From a bacterium (GTDB lineage Bacteria > JALSQH01): a DNA stretch of 8,219 bases. Shown piece by piece: positions 2,471 through 8,219 of the stretch. The translations under genes and the position numbers were made by a program. The notes beneath the pieces are model-generated. The model was not told where the DNA came from, ran no database searches, and saw only the letters and a list, made by a program, of their open reading frames with translations. Position 1 is the stretch's first letter. The number at the start of each line of letters is the position of its first letter. The stretch covers positions 1 through 8,219 of the forward strand of contig JALSQH010000202.1 in assembly GCA_026985515.1 (NCBI GenBank), written 5' to 3'.

Positions 2471-2936
2471 TCTTAACCTCCTCTATTGTGGAAATAGCTA
2501 TCGCAGCAGCCCCTTCCTTCTGACCAATCACACCCATCCCCTCCATGGTGGTGGCCTTAACATTAACAGGAGCTGAAATAATCCTTTCTAAATTCTGTTC
2601 AATGGACTTTTTCCATCTGGATAATCTGGGTACCTCACCAATATAGGTAAGATCCACATTGACCACCCTGTAACCCTTTTTTCTCAATAGCTCAATGGTT
2701 TCTCTGAGAAAAAACTCGCTTCTGACATTCTTCCATCTCTCATCTGAGGGGGGGAAATACTCGCCAATATCCCCAAGAGCAGCTGCACCAAGAAGGCTGT
2801 CAACAATTGCGTGGATTATCACATCAGCATCTGAATGCCCTTCAAGAGTGTATTCACAGGGAATCTCAACTCCACCAAGGTAAATAACCTCCCCTCTCTT
2901 AAACGGATGGAAATCAAAGCCTATACCTGATCTCAT
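2463..2936 (-). CDS. ispF: 2-C-methyl-D-erythritol 2,4-cyclodiphosphate synthase
   Basis: This 157-residue cytoplasmic enzyme cyclises CDP-methylerythritol 2-phosphate to MEcPP with release of CMP, in the MEP route to isoprenoid precursors. Metal-binding D8 and H10 sit in GIGFDFHPF and H42 in HSDADVIIHA, matching the D8/H10/H42 positions of the E. coli enzyme. The stretch LLGAAALGDIG (48-58) and the C-terminal ATTMEGMGVIGQKEG (128-142, with T130 and E132) are also family hallmarks. Length is typical for a single-domain IspF, so there is no IspD fusion, and no ispD is present in the window. The start codon overlaps the ytfJ-like stop as ATGA, with AAGGA shortly upstream. The gene overlaps the next, four-cysteine gene by 8 bases. 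All key residues are present, so an active enzyme is expected. Confidence 0.97.
   Translation of the reverse strand: MRSGIGFDFHPFKRGEVIYLGGVEIPCEYTLEGHSDADVIIHAIVDSLLGAAALGDIGEYFPPSDERWKNVRSEFFLRETIELLRKKGYRVVNVDLTYIGEVPRLSRWKKSIEQNLERIISAPVNVKATTMEGMGVIGQKEGAAAIAISTIEEVKNG
2476..2483 (-). promoter_or_regulatory. Ribosome binding site of the four-cysteine gene
   Basis: GAGGAGGT lies 5 bases before the ATG at 2470, inside the 3' end of ispF (coding Glu-Glu-Val). Such a strong site in front of a 62-codon frame is the main evidence that the small gene is translated. Confidence 0.85.
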
Positions 2937-3316
2937 TCTTCCTTCTCTTCTTCCTTCCCGGTGAATCGATCAAGTATGTCTGGAATCTGATCGACAAGTT
3001 TATCAAAAACACCACCGCCCTTTGTAACTCTGATAAAGGAAACATTGTCTCCATCTATTATGAGGAGTGCAATGGGAGTTACCTTCATACCACCACCAAA
3101 CCCTGAGAGGCTGCCTCCCGTACCATGCTTACTCTTTTTGATAACTCCCTCCTTCAACTCCCCCTCACCACCACCGCCACCAAAACCAATCAAAGCCTGA
3201 ATAAGGGGCACAACCGTTTTGCTTCCAATCTGTATCGGTTCCCCCACCACAGTTTTTGTGGTTGTAATGGACTTAAAATTTTCAAACATTTTCTCAATTG
3301 CCTCGATGTAGGACAT
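2933..3316 (-). CDS. YtfJ/GerW family protein (Spore_YtfJ)
   Basis: A 127-residue protein resembling B. subtilis YtfJ (GerW). Shared features in order: an N-terminal helix ending in an MFENFKSI-like turn, a VVGEPIQIGSKTVVPLIQ strand region (23-40), a glycine-rich GFGGGGGEGE (44-53), a second GGSLSGFGGGMKVTPIALLII block (67-87), and a final helix with DKLVDQIPDIL (105-115). In Bacillus, YtfJ is linked to spore germination, but homologues occur widely in non-spore-formers, where the role is unknown. The C-terminus is a run of Glu and Lys. A textbook ribosome binding site precedes the start. The coding region overlaps the DUF2953-like gene by 23 bases upstream and ispF by 4 bases (ATGA) downstream. 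Family assignment is confident; function in this organism is not known. Confidence 0.88.
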   Translation of the reverse strand: MSYIEAIEKMFENFKSITTTKTVVGEPIQIGSKTVVPLIQALIGFGGGGGEGELKEGVIKKSKHGTGGSLSGFGGGMKVTPIALLIIDGDNVSFIRVTKGGGVFDKLVDQIPDILDRFTGKEEEKEE

Positions 3317-3770
3317 TTTCCACCTCCTTCCTGATTATATCAATTATCCATATAAAACCAATTTTTACAAATAAAATCAATCTTCCACCAGCCCGGAAAA
3401 TGAAAAAGGGACGGAGTGCAAAACCGGGATGAAAATTCCTCATACCAAAAGCATACTTCACCCCGCTCAAGATCCCATCCCAGAAAGGGTCAGCGGTGGA
3501 AAGGAAAAGATCCCTCTCAGATTCTCTGATGACCATCTGAGAAATAATTTTAAATGTCCGCGGAGAAGGTGAAAATTTCCAGAAATAGCGAAGCAACTTT
3601 GAACTTCTGGTTCTCTTTCCCCTTCCTTTAAACAGCCTGATAATCTTCTTGAATTCAATTTTGAAACCAGAAAACTCCAGGAAATTTTCACTTCCAGTAT
3701 AAAAACTAACTCTGCTGTGAAGAAAAAGGATAAAAAGAACAGAAACCAGGGCCAGTGAAAGGTAAAACAT
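3294..3770 (-). CDS. DUF2953-like membrane protein (YtfI-like)
   Basis: A 158-residue basic protein. An N-terminal hydrophobic segment (residues 2-18, YLSLALVSVLFILFL) should anchor it in the inner membrane, and a second hydrophobic stretch lies at about 130-145. The middle is rich in Arg, Lys and Phe. The segment STADPFWDGILSGVKYAFG (91-109) resembles the GDP-x-x-TG-x-x-G region of DUF2953 proteins. Its place directly before the YtfJ-family gene is the stronger clue, because ytfI (DUF2953) and ytfJ are neighbours in Bacillus. It is shorter than the roughly 220 residues of Bacillus YtfI. The start lies 3 bases after the previous stop (TGA AAC ATG) with no clear Shine-Dalgarno, so coupled translation is likely. 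Its last codons contain the ytfJ-like ribosome binding site. Family assignment is moderate; function is unknown. Confidence 0.7.
   Translation of the reverse strand: MFYLSLALVSVLFILFLHSRVSFYTGSENFLEFSGFKIEFKKIIRLFKGRGKRTRSSKLLRYFWKFSPSPRTFKIISQMVIRESERDLFLSTADPFWDGILSGVKYAFGMRNFHPGFALRPFFIFRAGGRLILFVKIGFIWIIDIIRKEVENVLHRGN
3322..3329 (-). promoter_or_regulatory. Ribosome binding site of the YtfJ-family gene
   Basis: AAGGAGGT, a full anti-Shine-Dalgarno match, lies 5 bases before the ATG at 3316. It is embedded in the last codons of the DUF2953-like gene (Arg-Lys-Glu-Val), so the upstream C-terminus is partly shaped by this signal. It fixes the YtfJ-family start. Confidence 0.88.
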
Positions 3771-3773
3771 GTT

Positions 3774-4637
3774 TCACTGTACCAGATAAACTTCAACAGT
3801 TAGCATATGTACTTCACCATCCTTCTGGTTGGAGGAAAAACTGTAAGAAACAATTCCTCTCGGATATCGCCAGTAGATACCTCCTGAATATGTGTTGTAC
3901 CTGTAGCCTTCCAGATTCCATCCGGCAGTCAATCCAATTGTATTGTAAATCAGAAACTCAACACCAACCCTTATGAGAGTATCATCCTTTTTCCATCCAT
4001 TCTCAAGATGCTGAACCCAGTCAACTTCTCCTCTGAAAAAATCATCCACACTGCTTCCAATGGAAAACTCAAGAGCTTCAGGAAAATATGAATTGCTGTA
4101 TTTGAGAAAATTGTAAAATCCCACACCAAATCTGATAAGTTCACTGAATTTTACCATCATTCCAGCATCAAGATCCCACCCCTTTCTTCTCCTCACATAA
4201 TCCTTTATCCACTTAGCTGCAAGTCCAAAGTAGAGCATTTCAGAGTAGTGCTCCGCAAGGGAAAAGTAAAAATTGTCAATCTTTACACTCTTACCCCCAT
4301 CCTCAGCACTGAAGATTCTCCCATAGAGCATTCCACCAGCAAGTTCCTGGGTTGAATCAAAGGCAGAAAGATCCACATACATGGTCTTTGAAGAATCATT
4401 CATTTTGAAAGTATTAAAACCGATGCTGAAAAGATGGGTATCAGCTGCCGTTGCGGGATTCGCCTTGAGTAAACCATTTTCATGTCCCACCACAGAATAT
4501 GCGTTTCCCATCCCATGGGCAACTGAAGACTCAGGAATTTCAAATGAAAAAACAGATGCCGAGAACAGGAAAAAACTACCTGTAACCAAAATAACCAGGA
4601 CCAGTCCAGAAGATTCTTCCAGTGCTTTTCGATACAT
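3774..4637 (-). CDS. Predicted outer-membrane beta-barrel protein, PorV/UPF0164-like
   Basis: A 287-residue exported protein. A hydrophobic signal segment spans about residues 11-31 (GLVLVILVTGSFFLFSASVF), with probable cleavage near SVFS-FEIP. The mature N-terminus carries HGMGNAYSVVG...LLKANPA (41-61), the Gly-x-Gly-x-Ala plus NPA signature seen in PorV, UPF0164 and FadL-type barrels. The rest alternates polar and aromatic residues in beta-strand style, for example IRFGVGFYNFLKY and VGVEFLIYNTIGLTAGW. It ends in VEVYLVQ, lacking the usual terminal Phe. I chose the ATG at 4637 because AAGGAG lies 9 bases upstream; the longer frame to 4658 would begin with TTG. This start places 62 bases inside the upstream lipoprotein gene. 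The role may be outer-membrane transport or a scaffold for surface proteins; the substrate is unknown. Confidence 0.75.
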   Translation of the reverse strand: MYRKALEESSGLVLVILVTGSFFLFSASVFSFEIPESSVAHGMGNAYSVVGHENGLLKANPATAADTHLFSIGFNTFKMNDSSKTMYVDLSAFDSTQELAGGMLYGRIFSAEDGGKSVKIDNFYFSLAEHYSEMLYFGLAAKWIKDYVRRRKGWDLDAGMMVKFSELIRFGVGFYNFLKYSNSYFPEALEFSIGSSVDDFFRGEVDWVQHLENGWKKDDTLIRVGVEFLIYNTIGLTAGWNLEGYRYNTYSGGIYWRYPRGIVSYSFSSNQKDGEVHMLTVEVYLVQ

Positions 4638-6396
4638 CAAGGTACTCTCCTTTTCCAAATATCAGCGGATACCCTCCCCTAACAGGCATAACTTCAAGGT
4701 TATCATTCTTTACAAAAAAGAATAGAGAAGAGGTGAGATCAGAAATCTGACCTGAAAAGAGCAGTTCTTTTATCTTTTGATAGGAGGAATTGAAAGTCAG
4801 GAAAAGAACATGGCCTCCTGCTCTGAGAGTGACATAAAATTTTCCCCCATTCACCACAAGAACAGGATCTGTAACTCCGGAAGAGAAACTTTCAAGAAGA
4901 TGAGGTGTCCCTCCACTGGAAGAAAGTGAAAGAAGATAGAGAGAATCCCCTTCAAGGTAAATCATCCACTTACCATAGATATAGGGTGAATGGACACATT
5001 CATTTCCAGAAACAGAGAGAATCAACCTCTTATTTCCCGAGGTGTCTATTAACCACACAGGAATGGAGACACAGTTTGAAGATGCAAAGAAATTCACATC
5101 ACCACCTGTGATTGAAATGCCGTAAAGGGAATCTGTGGTAACAGAGGCTCTGTAACTGTCGTCACTTACATTGTAGATACTGAGTGTGTTCTCGCTGGAG
5201 TACAGAAGATAGGCACCCTCTGAGGCATCAAAGTCTTTGATATTTGTGGCTATCACACCGCCTGTACCTGAAAGCTCATATTTTCTGAAAACACCGCCAC
5301 TCAAAAAGAAGATAAAGTTCCCCTCAGTTTCAATCTTCCCCATAGGGATGGAAAGATTGACCTCACTGGCAGTCAGGAGATCATCTGCAGCCGGACTGCT
5401 GTAGTTGTAGGCAGCATCCACAGTGAAGAAGCAATATCGATAGGAAGTTGATGGTGAAACAGTGGTATCAGTAAAAAAGTTTGAGTAATATCCAAGGAAA
5501 ATTCCACCTGATATGGTATCTCCAGCTTCATATCTGTATCCCTGTTGAAGAGCAGGGCAGGAGGTATTTCCACCCATCCTCACGATGCCCACCCCTGTAA
5601 CCCCACCCATGGAGTAATCAATGGAAGAGGGAATATCTTCTCCTGCGGTAAAATTGAATACAGATCTTCTGTTACCGGCAAAGGAAAAGCTAACAGCTGG
5701 TGTGTGGGGTGGGATGCTGTCATGAATTATTCTGAGAACAGTTGCAGAACTATCTATGGAAGTACCATCTTCAAAGTATCTCCTTGCCACAAAATTAAAC
5801 TCATTAATCTGGTTCTTTTTCAATCTGAGAGTGGCTGACCATTCTGTTTCGGGACCAGGTGGAACAATCTGAATCCCATCTTTAATTATGGCTGTTCCAG
5901 TGGTTTTCTCTCCATATATTGTCACATTTAGCTCTCGGGTCACAGAAGGATATGATGTAATAACCGGTGGAGGAGGAGCTTCCCTCTCAATATTGTGCTG
6001 AAGTTCTTTCTCTTTCAGTGTGATCACTCCTGCATCTGTGACAATTCCCGGTAAAACTGTGATATTATCTTTTTCCCCCGTGTAAATTTTTGTCACGAAT
6101 TTTGCTGAAACCTGAAGAGTGTAACCAGTATCAGCGGGAATACCTGTCACAGTGGCGGAGTAACTGGTAAAAGGGAATTTTCTGGAAATGACAAAGTTTC
6201 CCTTTTTAACGATAATTTCAACTATTCCCTTTTGCAGTATGGAAGATGAAAGGGAAAGAGGGTAAAAACTTTTATTACTAACCGGCACAACAATTTCCAG
6301 AGAGATTCCACCTGTCAGGTTCCCTGATCCCCGCCTGCAACCTTCCCACAGGAAAATCAGGAATAATAAGAGTAAAACAGCTATCTTACATCTCAT
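4576..6396 (-). CDS. Probable lipoprotein with Ig-like, FN3-like and beta-propeller regions
   Basis: A 606-residue envelope protein. Residues 1-20 (MRCKIAVLLLLFLIFLWEGC) form a lipoprotein-type signal with C20 as candidate lipidated residue, although the lipobox WEGC is atypical. A beta-rich region (28-127) ends in a GIVTDAGVITL strand. A proline spacer PPPP (141-144) leads to an Ig-like domain (about 145-228) with the typical NEFNFVARRYFEDGTS pattern. An FN3-like domain (231-342) contains SYRYCFFTVDAAYNYSSP. Residues 349-606 show repeated short strands resembling beta-propeller blades. No catalytic motif is visible, so a binding or surface role is inferred. ATG at 6396 overlaps the FecR gene stop as ATGA; an ATG at 6414 (six residues longer, with GAAGG just upstream) is an equally plausible start. 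The C-terminal 20 codons overlap the next gene. Confidence 0.8.
   Translation of the reverse strand: MRCKIAVLLLLFLIFLWEGCRRGSGNLTGGISLEIVVPVSNKSFYPLSLSSSILQKGIVEIIVKKGNFVISRKFPFTSYSATVTGIPADTGYTLQVSAKFVTKIYTGEKDNITVLPGIVTDAGVITLKEKELQHNIEREAPPPPVITSYPSVTRELNVTIYGEKTTGTAIIKDGIQIVPPGPETEWSATLRLKKNQINEFNFVARRYFEDGTSIDSSATVLRIIHDSIPPHTPAVSFSFAGNRRSVFNFTAGEDIPSSIDYSMGGVTGVGIVRMGGNTSCPALQQGYRYEAGDTISGGIFLGYYSNFFTDTTVSPSTSYRYCFFTVDAAYNYSSPAADDLLTASEVNLSIPMGKIETEGNFIFFLSGGVFRKYELSGTGGVIATNIKDFDASEGAYLLYSSENTLSIYNVSDDSYRASVTTDSLYGISITGGDVNFFASSNCVSIPVWLIDTSGNKRLILSVSGNECVHSPYIYGKWMIYLEGDSLYLLSLSSSGGTPHLLESFSSGVTDPVLVVNGGKFYVTLRAGGHVLFLTFNSSYQKIKELLFSGQISDLTSSLFFFVKNDNLEVMPVRGGYPLIFGKGEYLDVSKSTGRIFWTGPGYFGYR
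4647..4652 (-). promoter_or_regulatory. Ribosome binding site that fixes the PorV-like gene start
   Basis: AAGGAG lies 9 bases before the ATG at 4637, inside the propeller-coding end of the lipoprotein gene. It supports the long 62-base overlap rather than a later start, since no ATG or GTG codon follows before the hydrophobic core of the signal peptide. Confidence 0.7.
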
Positions 6397-7181
6397 TTTT
6401 CTTTCAGCTTCCATTTTACCTTCACTGAACCTTTTCCCTTAATGAGAAAAAATTCCTTTATGTAGGCCCGAGAGTAGTTATCTGAAAACGGGTTCTTATC
6501 GGGGTAAACAAAGACACTGGACCTTTTTTCCTCCTGGTGGTAAAGCTTGGTGCCGAGTTTTATGAGGTCCTTCCTCTCCTGATATCTGTTACGGAAGCTG
6601 TCCACAATGGAATAATTCTTCATAACATCTTTTTTATCATCCACAGAGAGGTGAAGCAACATCCTGGCAGGGGGCTTATTTTCGGAAACCACTGTAATTT
6701 TGAGGGGCTCCAGTTCCACTTCACCTTTAACACTCTCCTTAACATTCTTCACAGTGGACTTACCATCAAGCTGATACACCTCTGTGGAGCTTGTACCTTC
6801 AATGTACTTTACAAGTATATTTCCTGCAGAGGAAGTAATAACAGCAGTTGGAGTGTAAAAACTCCTCTCACCTCCATAGACGACCCATCTTGCATTACCC
6901 TTAAAAAGATATCCAGTGGTTTTACCCTCAAGCACCTGAATTTTCAACATTCCATTGTTAACCACAGCGACCTGGTTACTATCTATCAGCACCACTGCTC
7001 TGCCAAGGGAAGCATCTATCACATCACCGTCACTGATTGCCTCTCCACCTTTTACCCTGAAAGACTTATTTCCCCGATTTATGAAAACACCACCCGACAC
7101 AGATACGATGGTTCCTCCAAGTAGGTATTCAGCAAAGAAGAAAAACCATATAATAAAAATTAAAAGTATCCGCCTAACCAT
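6393..7181 (-). CDS. Exported FecR-domain protein
   Basis: A 262-residue protein starting MVRRILLIFIIWFFFF, which is a signal peptide or N-terminal anchor (5-22). A FecR-type beta-roll domain follows at about 24-140: TIVSVSGGVFINR, then VKGGEAISDGDVIDASLGRAVVLIDSNQVAVV, the usual order of a Gly turn, a GD-x-I step and the Asp-Ser strand. The C-terminal half (about 150-262) is basic and unassigned, ending in IKGKGSVKVKWKLKEK. Unlike classical FecR it has no cytoplasmic anti-sigma region, and no sigma factor gene adjoins it, so a structural periplasmic role fits better than iron signalling. The start is uncertain: ATG at 7181 overlaps the TPR-barrel gene by 22 bases, and a GTG at 7193 would add four residues. 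Neither has a good Shine-Dalgarno, suggesting coupling to the upstream gene. It sits between an outer-membrane barrel and a lipoprotein gene. Confidence 0.82.
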   Translation of the reverse strand: MVRRILLIFIIWFFFFAEYLLGGTIVSVSGGVFINRGNKSFRVKGGEAISDGDVIDASLGRAVVLIDSNQVAVVNNGMLKIQVLEGKTTGYLFKGNARWVVYGGERSFYTPTAVITSSAGNILVKYIEGTSSTEVYQLDGKSTVKNVKESVKGEVELEPLKITVVSENKPPARMLLHLSVDDKKDVMKNYSIVDSFRNRYQERKDLIKLGTKLYHQEEKRSSVFVYPDKNPFSDNYSRAYIKEFFLIKGKGSVKVKWKLKEK

Positions 7182-8219
7182 ACCACTAGCCACTTCTCAT
7201 TTACGTTTTTCAAATATGAAAGAGTTCTGTTCATCCCATATGTTGCACCAAGCTCAATACTTCCCAACCACCTGTAATACAGAGAAAGTTCTCCACACAG
7301 TATTGTATCGTTTCTCTTCGTGGGAAAGTCTGGATAGTCTTCTGCCGAAAGTCTTGTCCATAATCCAAGATACAGTCCCCCCACCATATTTTTATCGATA
7401 CTGAGTTCAAAATAGGGACCCTGTCTGGAAAAATAGCCCCCCCTCTCACTCCAGTAACCTGTTCCGATGTATCCGTTGCTTCTCCCTGCATCAAATAGAA
7501 ATAATTCGTTCATATAAGCATAAAAACCGAAACCATTGTTCACCCAGTTTGAAATGTTGTATGAAAAGATACCTCCACCCATCCTGAATACATTTAATAT
7601 GCCCTGAGAAAAATCAACAAAGATATCTCCTCCATAATCATTTCTCAGCTCACCACCAAAGGAGTTATACCTGTAAAATATGGAAAGAGCTTCTTTAAAT
7701 TTTCCTGATGTGTGAAAATATGTAAGGGATGTTCTGGAATAGAACCTTCTTCCTGCCGAGTAATCTGGCTTGAAAAAGTACCTGCTGAAAAATTTTTCAT
7801 GTACTCCGAACTGAGATTTTCCTGGAGAAGTAATGTAATAGGCTTTCAATCTCATCATGGAATAAAGAACATTCTGGTCAGATTTCCCTTCCCTCAGTGG
7901 ATCAGTATCATATCCCGCTCCGGCTCTCGCAACAACACCATAATTCTTGAAGTTTTTGCCTTTATTTTCCAGGTAGTACAGATATCTCCTGGACTCAGTC
8001 AGGATTTCAGGATCATCTGTTATTGCAATGGTCTTTTTTAACCATTCAATCGTGTCGCTATCTTTGAGAAGATGAAGGTAATTGAGCGCTGTAAAGTAAT
8101 TTGCCACATCCCTCAATTCAGGAAGAAGAAGTGAAGCTCTGTCAAAGATTTTCTCTTCGAGGTTTCCATTTACATACATGTCAGCAAGAGCAAGGTAAAA
8201 TTCAGCAATGGGATCACTG
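7160..8219 (-). CDS. TPR plus outer-membrane beta-barrel protein (5' end cut by window edge)
   Basis: The frame is open to the window edge, so the visible 352 residues are the C-terminal part; an internal ATG at 8179 is unlikely to be the start because helical repeat sequence continues upstream of it (DPIAEFYLALADMYVNG). Visible residues 1-85 are alpha-helical tetratricopeptide-like repeats (AEFYLALADMYVNGNLEEK, then YFTALNYLHLLKD, then ESRRYLYYLENKG). From about residue 93 a beta-barrel begins with GVVARAGAGYDTDPL, resembling the GYDSNP entry motif of TPR-barrel proteins such as Slam/DUF560. About 260 residues of alternating aromatic strands follow, enough for 12-14 strands, and the protein ends WLGGYF, a good C-terminal aromatic BAM signal. 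It probably sits in the outer membrane with its TPR part in the periplasm. Slam-like lipoprotein delivery is a possibility, not a demonstrated assignment. Confidence 0.8.
   Translation of the reverse strand, partial: SDPIAEFYLALADMYVNGNLEEKIFDRASLLLPELRDVANYFTALNYLHLLKDSDTIEWLKKTIAITDDPEILTESRRYLYYLENKGKNFKNYGVVARAGAGYDTDPLREGKSDQNVLYSMMRLKAYYITSPGKSQFGVHEKFFSRYFFKPDYSAGRRFYSRTSLTYFHTSGKFKEALSIFYRYNSFGGELRNDYGGDIFVDFSQGILNVFRMGGGIFSYNISNWVNNGFGFYAYMNELFLFDAGRSNGYIGTGYWSERGGYFSRQGPYFELSIDKNMVGGLYLGLWTRLSAEDYPDFPTKRNDTILCGELSLYYRWLGSIELGATYGMNRTLSYLKNVNEKWLVVWLGGYF

What the first reader, a model, noticed from the sequence alone, without database searches (positions are those of the whole stretch)
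3774..8219. Four-gene envelope block: TPR-barrel, FecR-domain, Ig/propeller lipoprotein, PorV-like barrel
Four overlapping genes encode two outer-membrane barrels, one periplasmic FecR-domain protein and one probable lipoprotein. Such tight coupling suggests one machine. I know no named system with this exact composition. A PorV-like barrel beside a multi-domain exported protein recalls surface-anchoring systems, but no type IX sorting domain or other T9SS component is visible.
Basis: partly seen in the sequence, partly recalled or inferred. Interest (0 to 1): 0.65.

Follow-up and report, generated by a model that had tools for sequence, protein, structure and literature searches.

The report
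Outer-membrane barrel, FecR, lipoprotein cassette
Three of the four genes (an outer-membrane pore with helper repeats, a small periplasmic protein and a lipoprotein) form a gene set kept together, in this order, in unrelated bacteria, probably a machine that puts the lipoprotein on the cell surface or senses through it; the fourth gene looks like a lineage-specific neighbour.

Summary
The four genes are real, on the minus strand. The window is one whole contig; a 126-bp exact overlap with contig C246 completes the first gene (476 aa: signal peptide, TPRs, then a barrel modelled with 14 strands). The lipoproteins usually share an N-terminal domain followed by variable domains (propellers, Ig/cadherin, beta-helix). 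In other loci the TPR-barrel/FecR pair precedes a CHASE2 protein or a large exported protein. The fourth gene is a FadL-fold barrel that matches no PorV/PorQ model; it was not seen beside the other triads, while the sister genome keeps it beside YtfJ-IspF-ArgS. Gene overlap alone proves little, because the close spacing continues into IspF and ArgS. Best reading: a surface-display module working like Slam (TPR + 14-strand barrel + adjacent lipoprotein) with a periplasmic FecR adaptor; main rival: trans-envelope sensing, as proposed for published CHASE2-FecR-TPR clusters. The window's copy is divergent; its lipoprotein shows no detectable sequence kinship to the others.

The parts
7160..8219 (-). 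3' part of the TPR + 14-strand outer-membrane barrel gene; the 5' part (with signal peptide and more TPRs) lies on contig G000:C246 from base 6210; full protein 476 aa
   Evidence: 126-bp exact overlap; TPR; barrel family; model and fold search
6393..7181 (-). exported FecR-domain protein (ATG 7181; GTG 7193 also possible), signal peptide, FecR-type core
   Evidence: profile-level match to FecR proteins
6393..6437 (-). FecR C-terminal alternating beta-strand (GKGSVKVKWKLKEK), a pattern seen in 15 of 18 FecR proteins that precede a lipoprotein
4576..6396 (-). probable lipoprotein (inner ATG 6396, ATGA overlap with the FecR stop; outer ATG 6414 also possible): Cys after signal peptide, N-terminal beta domain, Ig/FN3-like middle, propeller-like C-terminal third
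   Evidence: lipobox LWEGC atypical; N-terminal domain kinship to other triad lipoproteins not detectable by sequence
3774..4637 (-). FadL-superfamily 14-strand barrel with NPA motif ('PorV-like'); probably a neighbour, not a core part
   Evidence: FadL fold; not PorV/PorQ; 59% identity in the sister genome; start with GGAGAG

Best explanation
Shown by comparison: the block is a divergent copy of a conserved three-gene envelope cassette, TPR-barrel, then FecR-domain periplasmic protein, then lipoprotein, with a FadL-type barrel gene of its own lineage next to it. Inferred mechanism: the TPR-barrel sits in the outer membrane with its TPRs in the periplasm; the FecR protein binds the TPRs and, through its C-terminal beta-strand, the N-terminal beta domain of the lipoprotein (strand addition), handing the lipoprotein to the barrel, which displays it on the cell surface, as Slam does for its lipoproteins. 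The N-terminal domain would be the targeting part and the variable C-terminal domains (propeller, Ig, cadherin, beta-helix) the working part.
For: Gene order: loci were chosen by FecR similarity only, yet 21 of 55 stand-alone FecR genes have a homologous TPR-barrel directly upstream and 20 were flagged with a lipoprotein downstream by a loose lipobox pattern that takes in a few false calls (the CHASE2 cyclase of L109, also L110 and L135); 9 have both by the automatic rule, 12 after adding L147 (missed lipobox), L125 (FecR start over-called) and the window (barrel below that run's cut-off), in families f1, f15, f21, f41, f49, f92, f95, f167. G000 itself holds a second triad on C80 (L107), with a standard lipobox (IAGC). 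A barrel profile built without the window finds the window's barrel (E 3.8e-5; YDxNV against the window's YDTDPL, and a KRxD segment). 14 strands as in Slam (PMC5449769). Lipoproteins: 14 of 18 share an N-terminal domain in a leave-one-out test, followed by NHL, RCC1, PQQ-propeller, Big_9/cadherin, TIG or beta-helix domains. The FecR C-terminal strand goes with a downstream lipoprotein (15/18 against 11/37, Fisher p 4e-4).
Against: No direct evidence of transport. The window's barrel fails PF04575. The same pair precedes CHASE2 proteins in some loci, which fits sensing better than export. The window's lipoprotein has an atypical lipobox, and its N-terminal domain scores no better than shuffled sequence. 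The barrel profile was built from genes found upstream of FecR, so the 24-of-30 adjacency is partly circular; the FecR strand pattern was noticed before it was counted. The three genes could not be tested in the sister genome G001, whose contigs break in Sat and in the PorV-like gene.
Confidence: 0.4

Rival explanations
1. Trans-envelope sensing module: the TPR-barrel is a surface receptor or channel, FecR relays its state across the periplasm, and the third gene is the output or co-receptor; CHASE2 proteins in some lineages, a ligand-binding propeller lipoprotein here.
For: CHASE2 third genes in L148 and L127 (with upstream TPR-barrel) and in L057 (barrel immediately before the cyclase), L109 and L105 (FecR next to CHASE2). 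[quoted passage not shown] S. meliloti CHASE2 cyclases need the outer-membrane barrel NsrA (PMC7529298, PMC13001267). FecR proper relays an outer-membrane signal (general knowledge).
Against: No cytoplasmic effector seen in or next to the window's triad or the C80 triad. Variable repeat-rich domains on the lipoprotein look more like displayed cargo than relay parts. Homology of NsrA to these barrels was not tested.
Confidence: 0.3
2. Export channel for a polysaccharide or other polymer, like BcsC/PgaA, with FecR and lipoprotein as envelope accessories.
For: Foldseek's first hit for the TPR-barrel model is BcsC (E 6.7e-6); PelBC and a polysaccharide secretin are also listed.
Against: 14 strands and better Z to the 14-strand CymA and OmpG than to BcsC; no glycosyltransferase or polymerase recognised in the window or on the joined 14.8-kb stretch (RmlA alone on C246).
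Confidence: 0.1
3. The fourth gene belongs too: a lineage-specific four-part surface complex in which the FadL-type barrel anchors or shuttles the lipoprotein, as PorV does in type IX secretion.
For: Physical overlap with the lipoprotein gene; FadL fold; 59% identity to the sister genome's copy.
Against: Not seen next to the other triads, including the second triad of the same genome (one of them, L055, ends right after the lipoprotein); fails PorV/PorQ models; adjacent to YtfJ-IspF-ArgS in both genomes.
Confidence: 0.12
4. Chance string of envelope genes in a densely packed genome; no shared function.
For: The same close spacing continues into IspF, ArgS and SPOR.
Against: Order conserved in 8 families.
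Confidence: 0.05

Closest known systems
Slam / type XI secretion (DUF560, PF04575) with its surface lipoprotein
   Same: N-terminal periplasmic TPRs, C-terminal 14-strand barrel, gene next to a lipoprotein with a common domain (PMC5449769; PMC8406197)
   Different: no PF04575 match for the window protein and at most a subthreshold one in the family; FecR protein between the two; lipoproteins share an N-terminal domain rather than a TbpB-like barrel; this genome is not placed in Proteobacteria by anything I saw, but its phylum is not known to me
CHASE2 cyclase, FecR-domain and TPR protein cluster of Campylobacterota (PMC9239204)
   Same: FecR and TPR proteins encoded together; CHASE2 proteins stand third in some relatives found here
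   Different: third gene here is a lipoprotein; no cyclase or phosphodiesterase; the passage read does not describe a barrel on the TPR protein
FecA-FecR-FecI
   Same: FecR domain in the periplasm beside an outer-membrane barrel
   Different: no sigma factor and no TonB-dependent receptor in or next to the window; FecR protein has a signal peptide and no cytoplasmic part
PorV/PorQ of type IX secretion
   Same: FadL-type barrel with NPA motif
   Different: no match to NF033709, NF033710 or NF033711 although controls match
Leptospira FecR-domain surface proteins Lsa33 and LipL45 (NF047849, NF033165)
   Same: the second FecR protein of this genome matches them below cut-off (E 7e-22 and 1e-12)
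   Different: the window FecR protein was not matched; no lipobox here

Membership tests
Slam / type XI secretion outer-membrane protein | DUF560 barrel (PF04575) at gathering score | tested here: not met
   no hit for the full window protein at E<=0.1; best seen in the family L094, 18.6 bits against a cut-off of 22
Slam / type XI secretion outer-membrane protein | N-terminal TPR domain plus 14-strand barrel | tested here: met
   TPR Pfam hits; model with 14 strands, pTM 0.63
Slam / type XI secretion outer-membrane protein | neighbouring lipoprotein gene | tested here: inconclusive
   met in the other triads; the window's own lipobox is atypical
Slam / type XI secretion outer-membrane protein | barrel-dependent surface display of the lipoprotein | not testable with these tools
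   needs an expression and surface-labelling test
FecR domain (PF04773) | Pfam gathering score | tested here: inconclusive
   window protein has no direct hit; its relatives L054, L055, L056 and L036 pass and align with it
PorV/PorQ family | NCBIfam NF033709 at cut-off | tested here: not met
   0 families for the window protein; controls L029 and L113 at E 5e-56 and 1e-54
Type IX secretion system | C-terminal sorting domain on the exported protein | tested here: not met
   lipoprotein matches no NCBIfam model at E<=1
Type IX secretion system | other components (SprA, PorK-N) in the genome | not tested
CHASE2-FecR-TPR signalling cluster | CHASE2 cyclase or kinase in the cluster | tested here: not met
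   no such gene recognised in the window or on C246; present in relatives L148, L109, L105, L127

The most novel reading that the evidence does not exclude
A widespread, undescribed surface-display system: a non-DUF560 TPR-barrel that exports lipoproteins recognised by a shared N-terminal domain, with a periplasmic FecR adaptor that works by donating its C-terminal beta-strand, and whose adaptor/barrel pair has been reused with CHASE2 proteins for sensing.
Probability: 0.3. Interest if true: 0.75.

Novelty: new variant of a known kind. Interest (0 to 1): 0.5.

Why it matters
How lipoproteins reach the cell surface in most bacteria without Slam is largely open. A cassette that recurs across families and pairs an outer-membrane TPR-barrel with a lipoprotein of constant N-terminus and variable working end gives a concrete, testable candidate, and gives many stand-alone FecR-domain proteins a likely partner. 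It also links, through shared barrel and FecR genes, surface lipoproteins with CHASE2 signalling proteins.

Tried and rejected
The search for related loci with the lipoprotein found no relative among GTDB contigs; with the PorV-like pair it found only the sister genome's record JALTID010000110.1; plasmids gave nothing. PHROGs gave only one weak hit of unknown function. Neighbourhoods of distant PorV-like hits held no triad. The idea that gene overlap alone shows one machine was dropped because the run continues into housekeeping genes. Type IX membership was dropped. A Slam fold did not appear among the listed structural neighbours, which says nothing either way. Self-similarity of the lipoprotein's last third was only marginally above shuffles (best 35 against a 95% level of 31), so the propeller stays a suggestion. 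Literature searches for FecR with TPR, barrel and lipoprotein found no description of the triad; the two DUF560 papers checked do not mention FecR. The J Bacteriol paper on NsrA was not held.
Full report
What is there. The window is contig C202 of the genome G000, 8219 bases. All four genes lie on the minus strand. The first is cut by the contig end. The last 126 bases of the window recur exactly near the end of contig C246; joined there (the last two bases of C246 differ), the gene reads 476 aa from a start at C246:6210, with signal peptide and TPRs. I take the join as an assembly overlap; it is an inference from one exact 126-bp match. Upstream on C246 are a TPR protein, ATP sulfurylase and APS kinase by my reading of the translations.

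The four products. (1) TPR-barrel: TPR families by Pfam; the 352-aa part in the window was modelled with 22 relatives, five helices then 14 strands, pTM 0.63, Z about 20-21 to the 14-strand barrels CymA and OmpG; BcsC, a TPR-barrel with a larger barrel, is Foldseek's first hit. (2) FecR protein: signal peptide, a core similar to proteins that pass PF04773, and a C-terminal strand KGSVKVKWKL. It has no direct Pfam hit. (3) Probable lipoprotein: the inner start overlaps the FecR stop as ATGA; Cys after a hydrophobic stretch, but L-W-E-G-C is not a standard lipobox. Residues 145-288 resemble repeats in giant exported proteins (E 3.5e-9) and 316-497 a protein with blade-like repeats (E 3.4e-4); I did not test that protein for a propeller. 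(4) FadL-type barrel: 14 strands, FadL as first structural hit, NPA motif, start at ATG 4637 behind GGAGAG. NCBIfam PorV/PorQ models do not match it, while two control barrels match at E<1e-53.

Conservation. I searched 386 genomes with the window FecR protein, then with a four-row FecR profile, which is broad: 164 genomes matched. Neighbourhoods of top-scoring hits were taken and read mechanically. Of 55 stand-alone FecR genes, 21 have a TPR-barrel of one family directly upstream, 20 were flagged with a lipoprotein downstream and 9 have both. The lipoprotein flag used a deliberately loose lipobox pattern: it counts the CHASE2 cyclase of L109, and L110 and L135, which do not look like lipoproteins, and it missed L147. 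Adding by hand L147, L125 (FecR start called too early) and the window itself gives 12 triads in 8 families. The first independent case was L055 (G049:C368), with the same order and 4-bp overlaps. G000 has a second triad on C80 (L107), better conserved than the window's.

How the window relates to the family. Its barrel is found by a profile made without it (E 3.8e-5 with Z=1000), matching at the barrel start and near the C-terminus; its FecR protein is found by single-sequence search. Its lipoprotein is not: in a leave-one-out test 14 of 18 N-terminal domains recognise each other, the window's does not. So the window's membership rests on order, size, two of three proteins and architecture.

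What stands third. Lipoproteins carry NHL, RCC1, PQQ-type propeller, Big_9/cadherin, TIG or beta-helix domains behind the shared N-terminus. Elsewhere the pair precedes large exported proteins (a clostripain-like one in L104, CarboxypepD_reg and Big_2 domains in L108 and L114) or CHASE2 proteins: CHASE2 cyclase in L148, a CHASE2 domain in L127; FecR without a barrel seen upstream precedes a CHASE2 cyclase in L109 and a CHASE2 kinase in L105; in L057 the barrel gene itself precedes the cyclase.

The FecR tail. FecR proteins followed by a lipoprotein end in an alternating hydrophobic strand more often (15/18) than the rest (11/37), p 4e-4. The pattern was noticed on these sequences before it was counted, so this is a lead, not a test. 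The 18 were a hand-checked set that leaves out the false calls named above.

The fourth gene. No PorV-like gene was seen beside the other triads (L055 ends right after the lipoprotein), nor beside the C80 triad. In the sister genome G001 the PorV-like gene, 59% identical over its end, sits beside the DUF, YtfJ, IspF and ArgS genes as here. G001's contigs break inside Sat and inside the PorV-like gene, so whether it has the triad between them is unknown.

Mechanism. Two readings fit. Display: TPRs, 14 strands and a neighbouring lipoprotein are the layout of Slam, and the constant-plus-variable lipoproteins look like cargo. Sensing: the pair with CHASE2 proteins matches published Campylobacterota clusters, and a CHASE2 pathway that depends on an outer-membrane barrel is known in S. 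meliloti. I favour display for lipoprotein-type loci (0.4) over sensing (0.3). Contacts among the products are inferred; no complex was modelled.

Known or new. It is not Slam by PF04575 and not type IX by the models tested. I found no paper that describes the TPR-barrel, FecR, lipoprotein order, within a library that lacks most subscription journals. I file it as a new variant of a known kind.

Noticed in passing
window 3294-3770 (-) and 2933-3316 (-): A 158-aa membrane-associated protein next to YtfJ (PF09579) recalls the Bacillus ytfI-ytfJ pair, in a lineage with outer-membrane barrels; the 158-aa protein has no Pfam hit, so this is from memory.
   Followed up: no
L107 (G000:C80) 4975-9412: Second triad in the same genome, with a standard lipobox and better conserved than the window's; the better object for models and tests.
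   Followed up: partly
L005 (G000:C246) 3501-6170: APS kinase and ATP sulfurylase genes directly before a TPR protein and the TPR-barrel gene; the sister genome keeps the APS kinase/sulfurylase start beside RmlA and IspD.
   Followed up: no
L097 (G261) and L144 (G206): TPR-barrel followed by a FecR domain in a long exported protein (2033 and 696 aa).
   Followed up: no
L105 (G379): FecR gene overlapping a gene for a CHASE2 protein kinase.
   Followed up: no
L126 (G039): FecR gene directly followed by a PorV-like barrel gene, the only such direct case seen.
   Followed up: no
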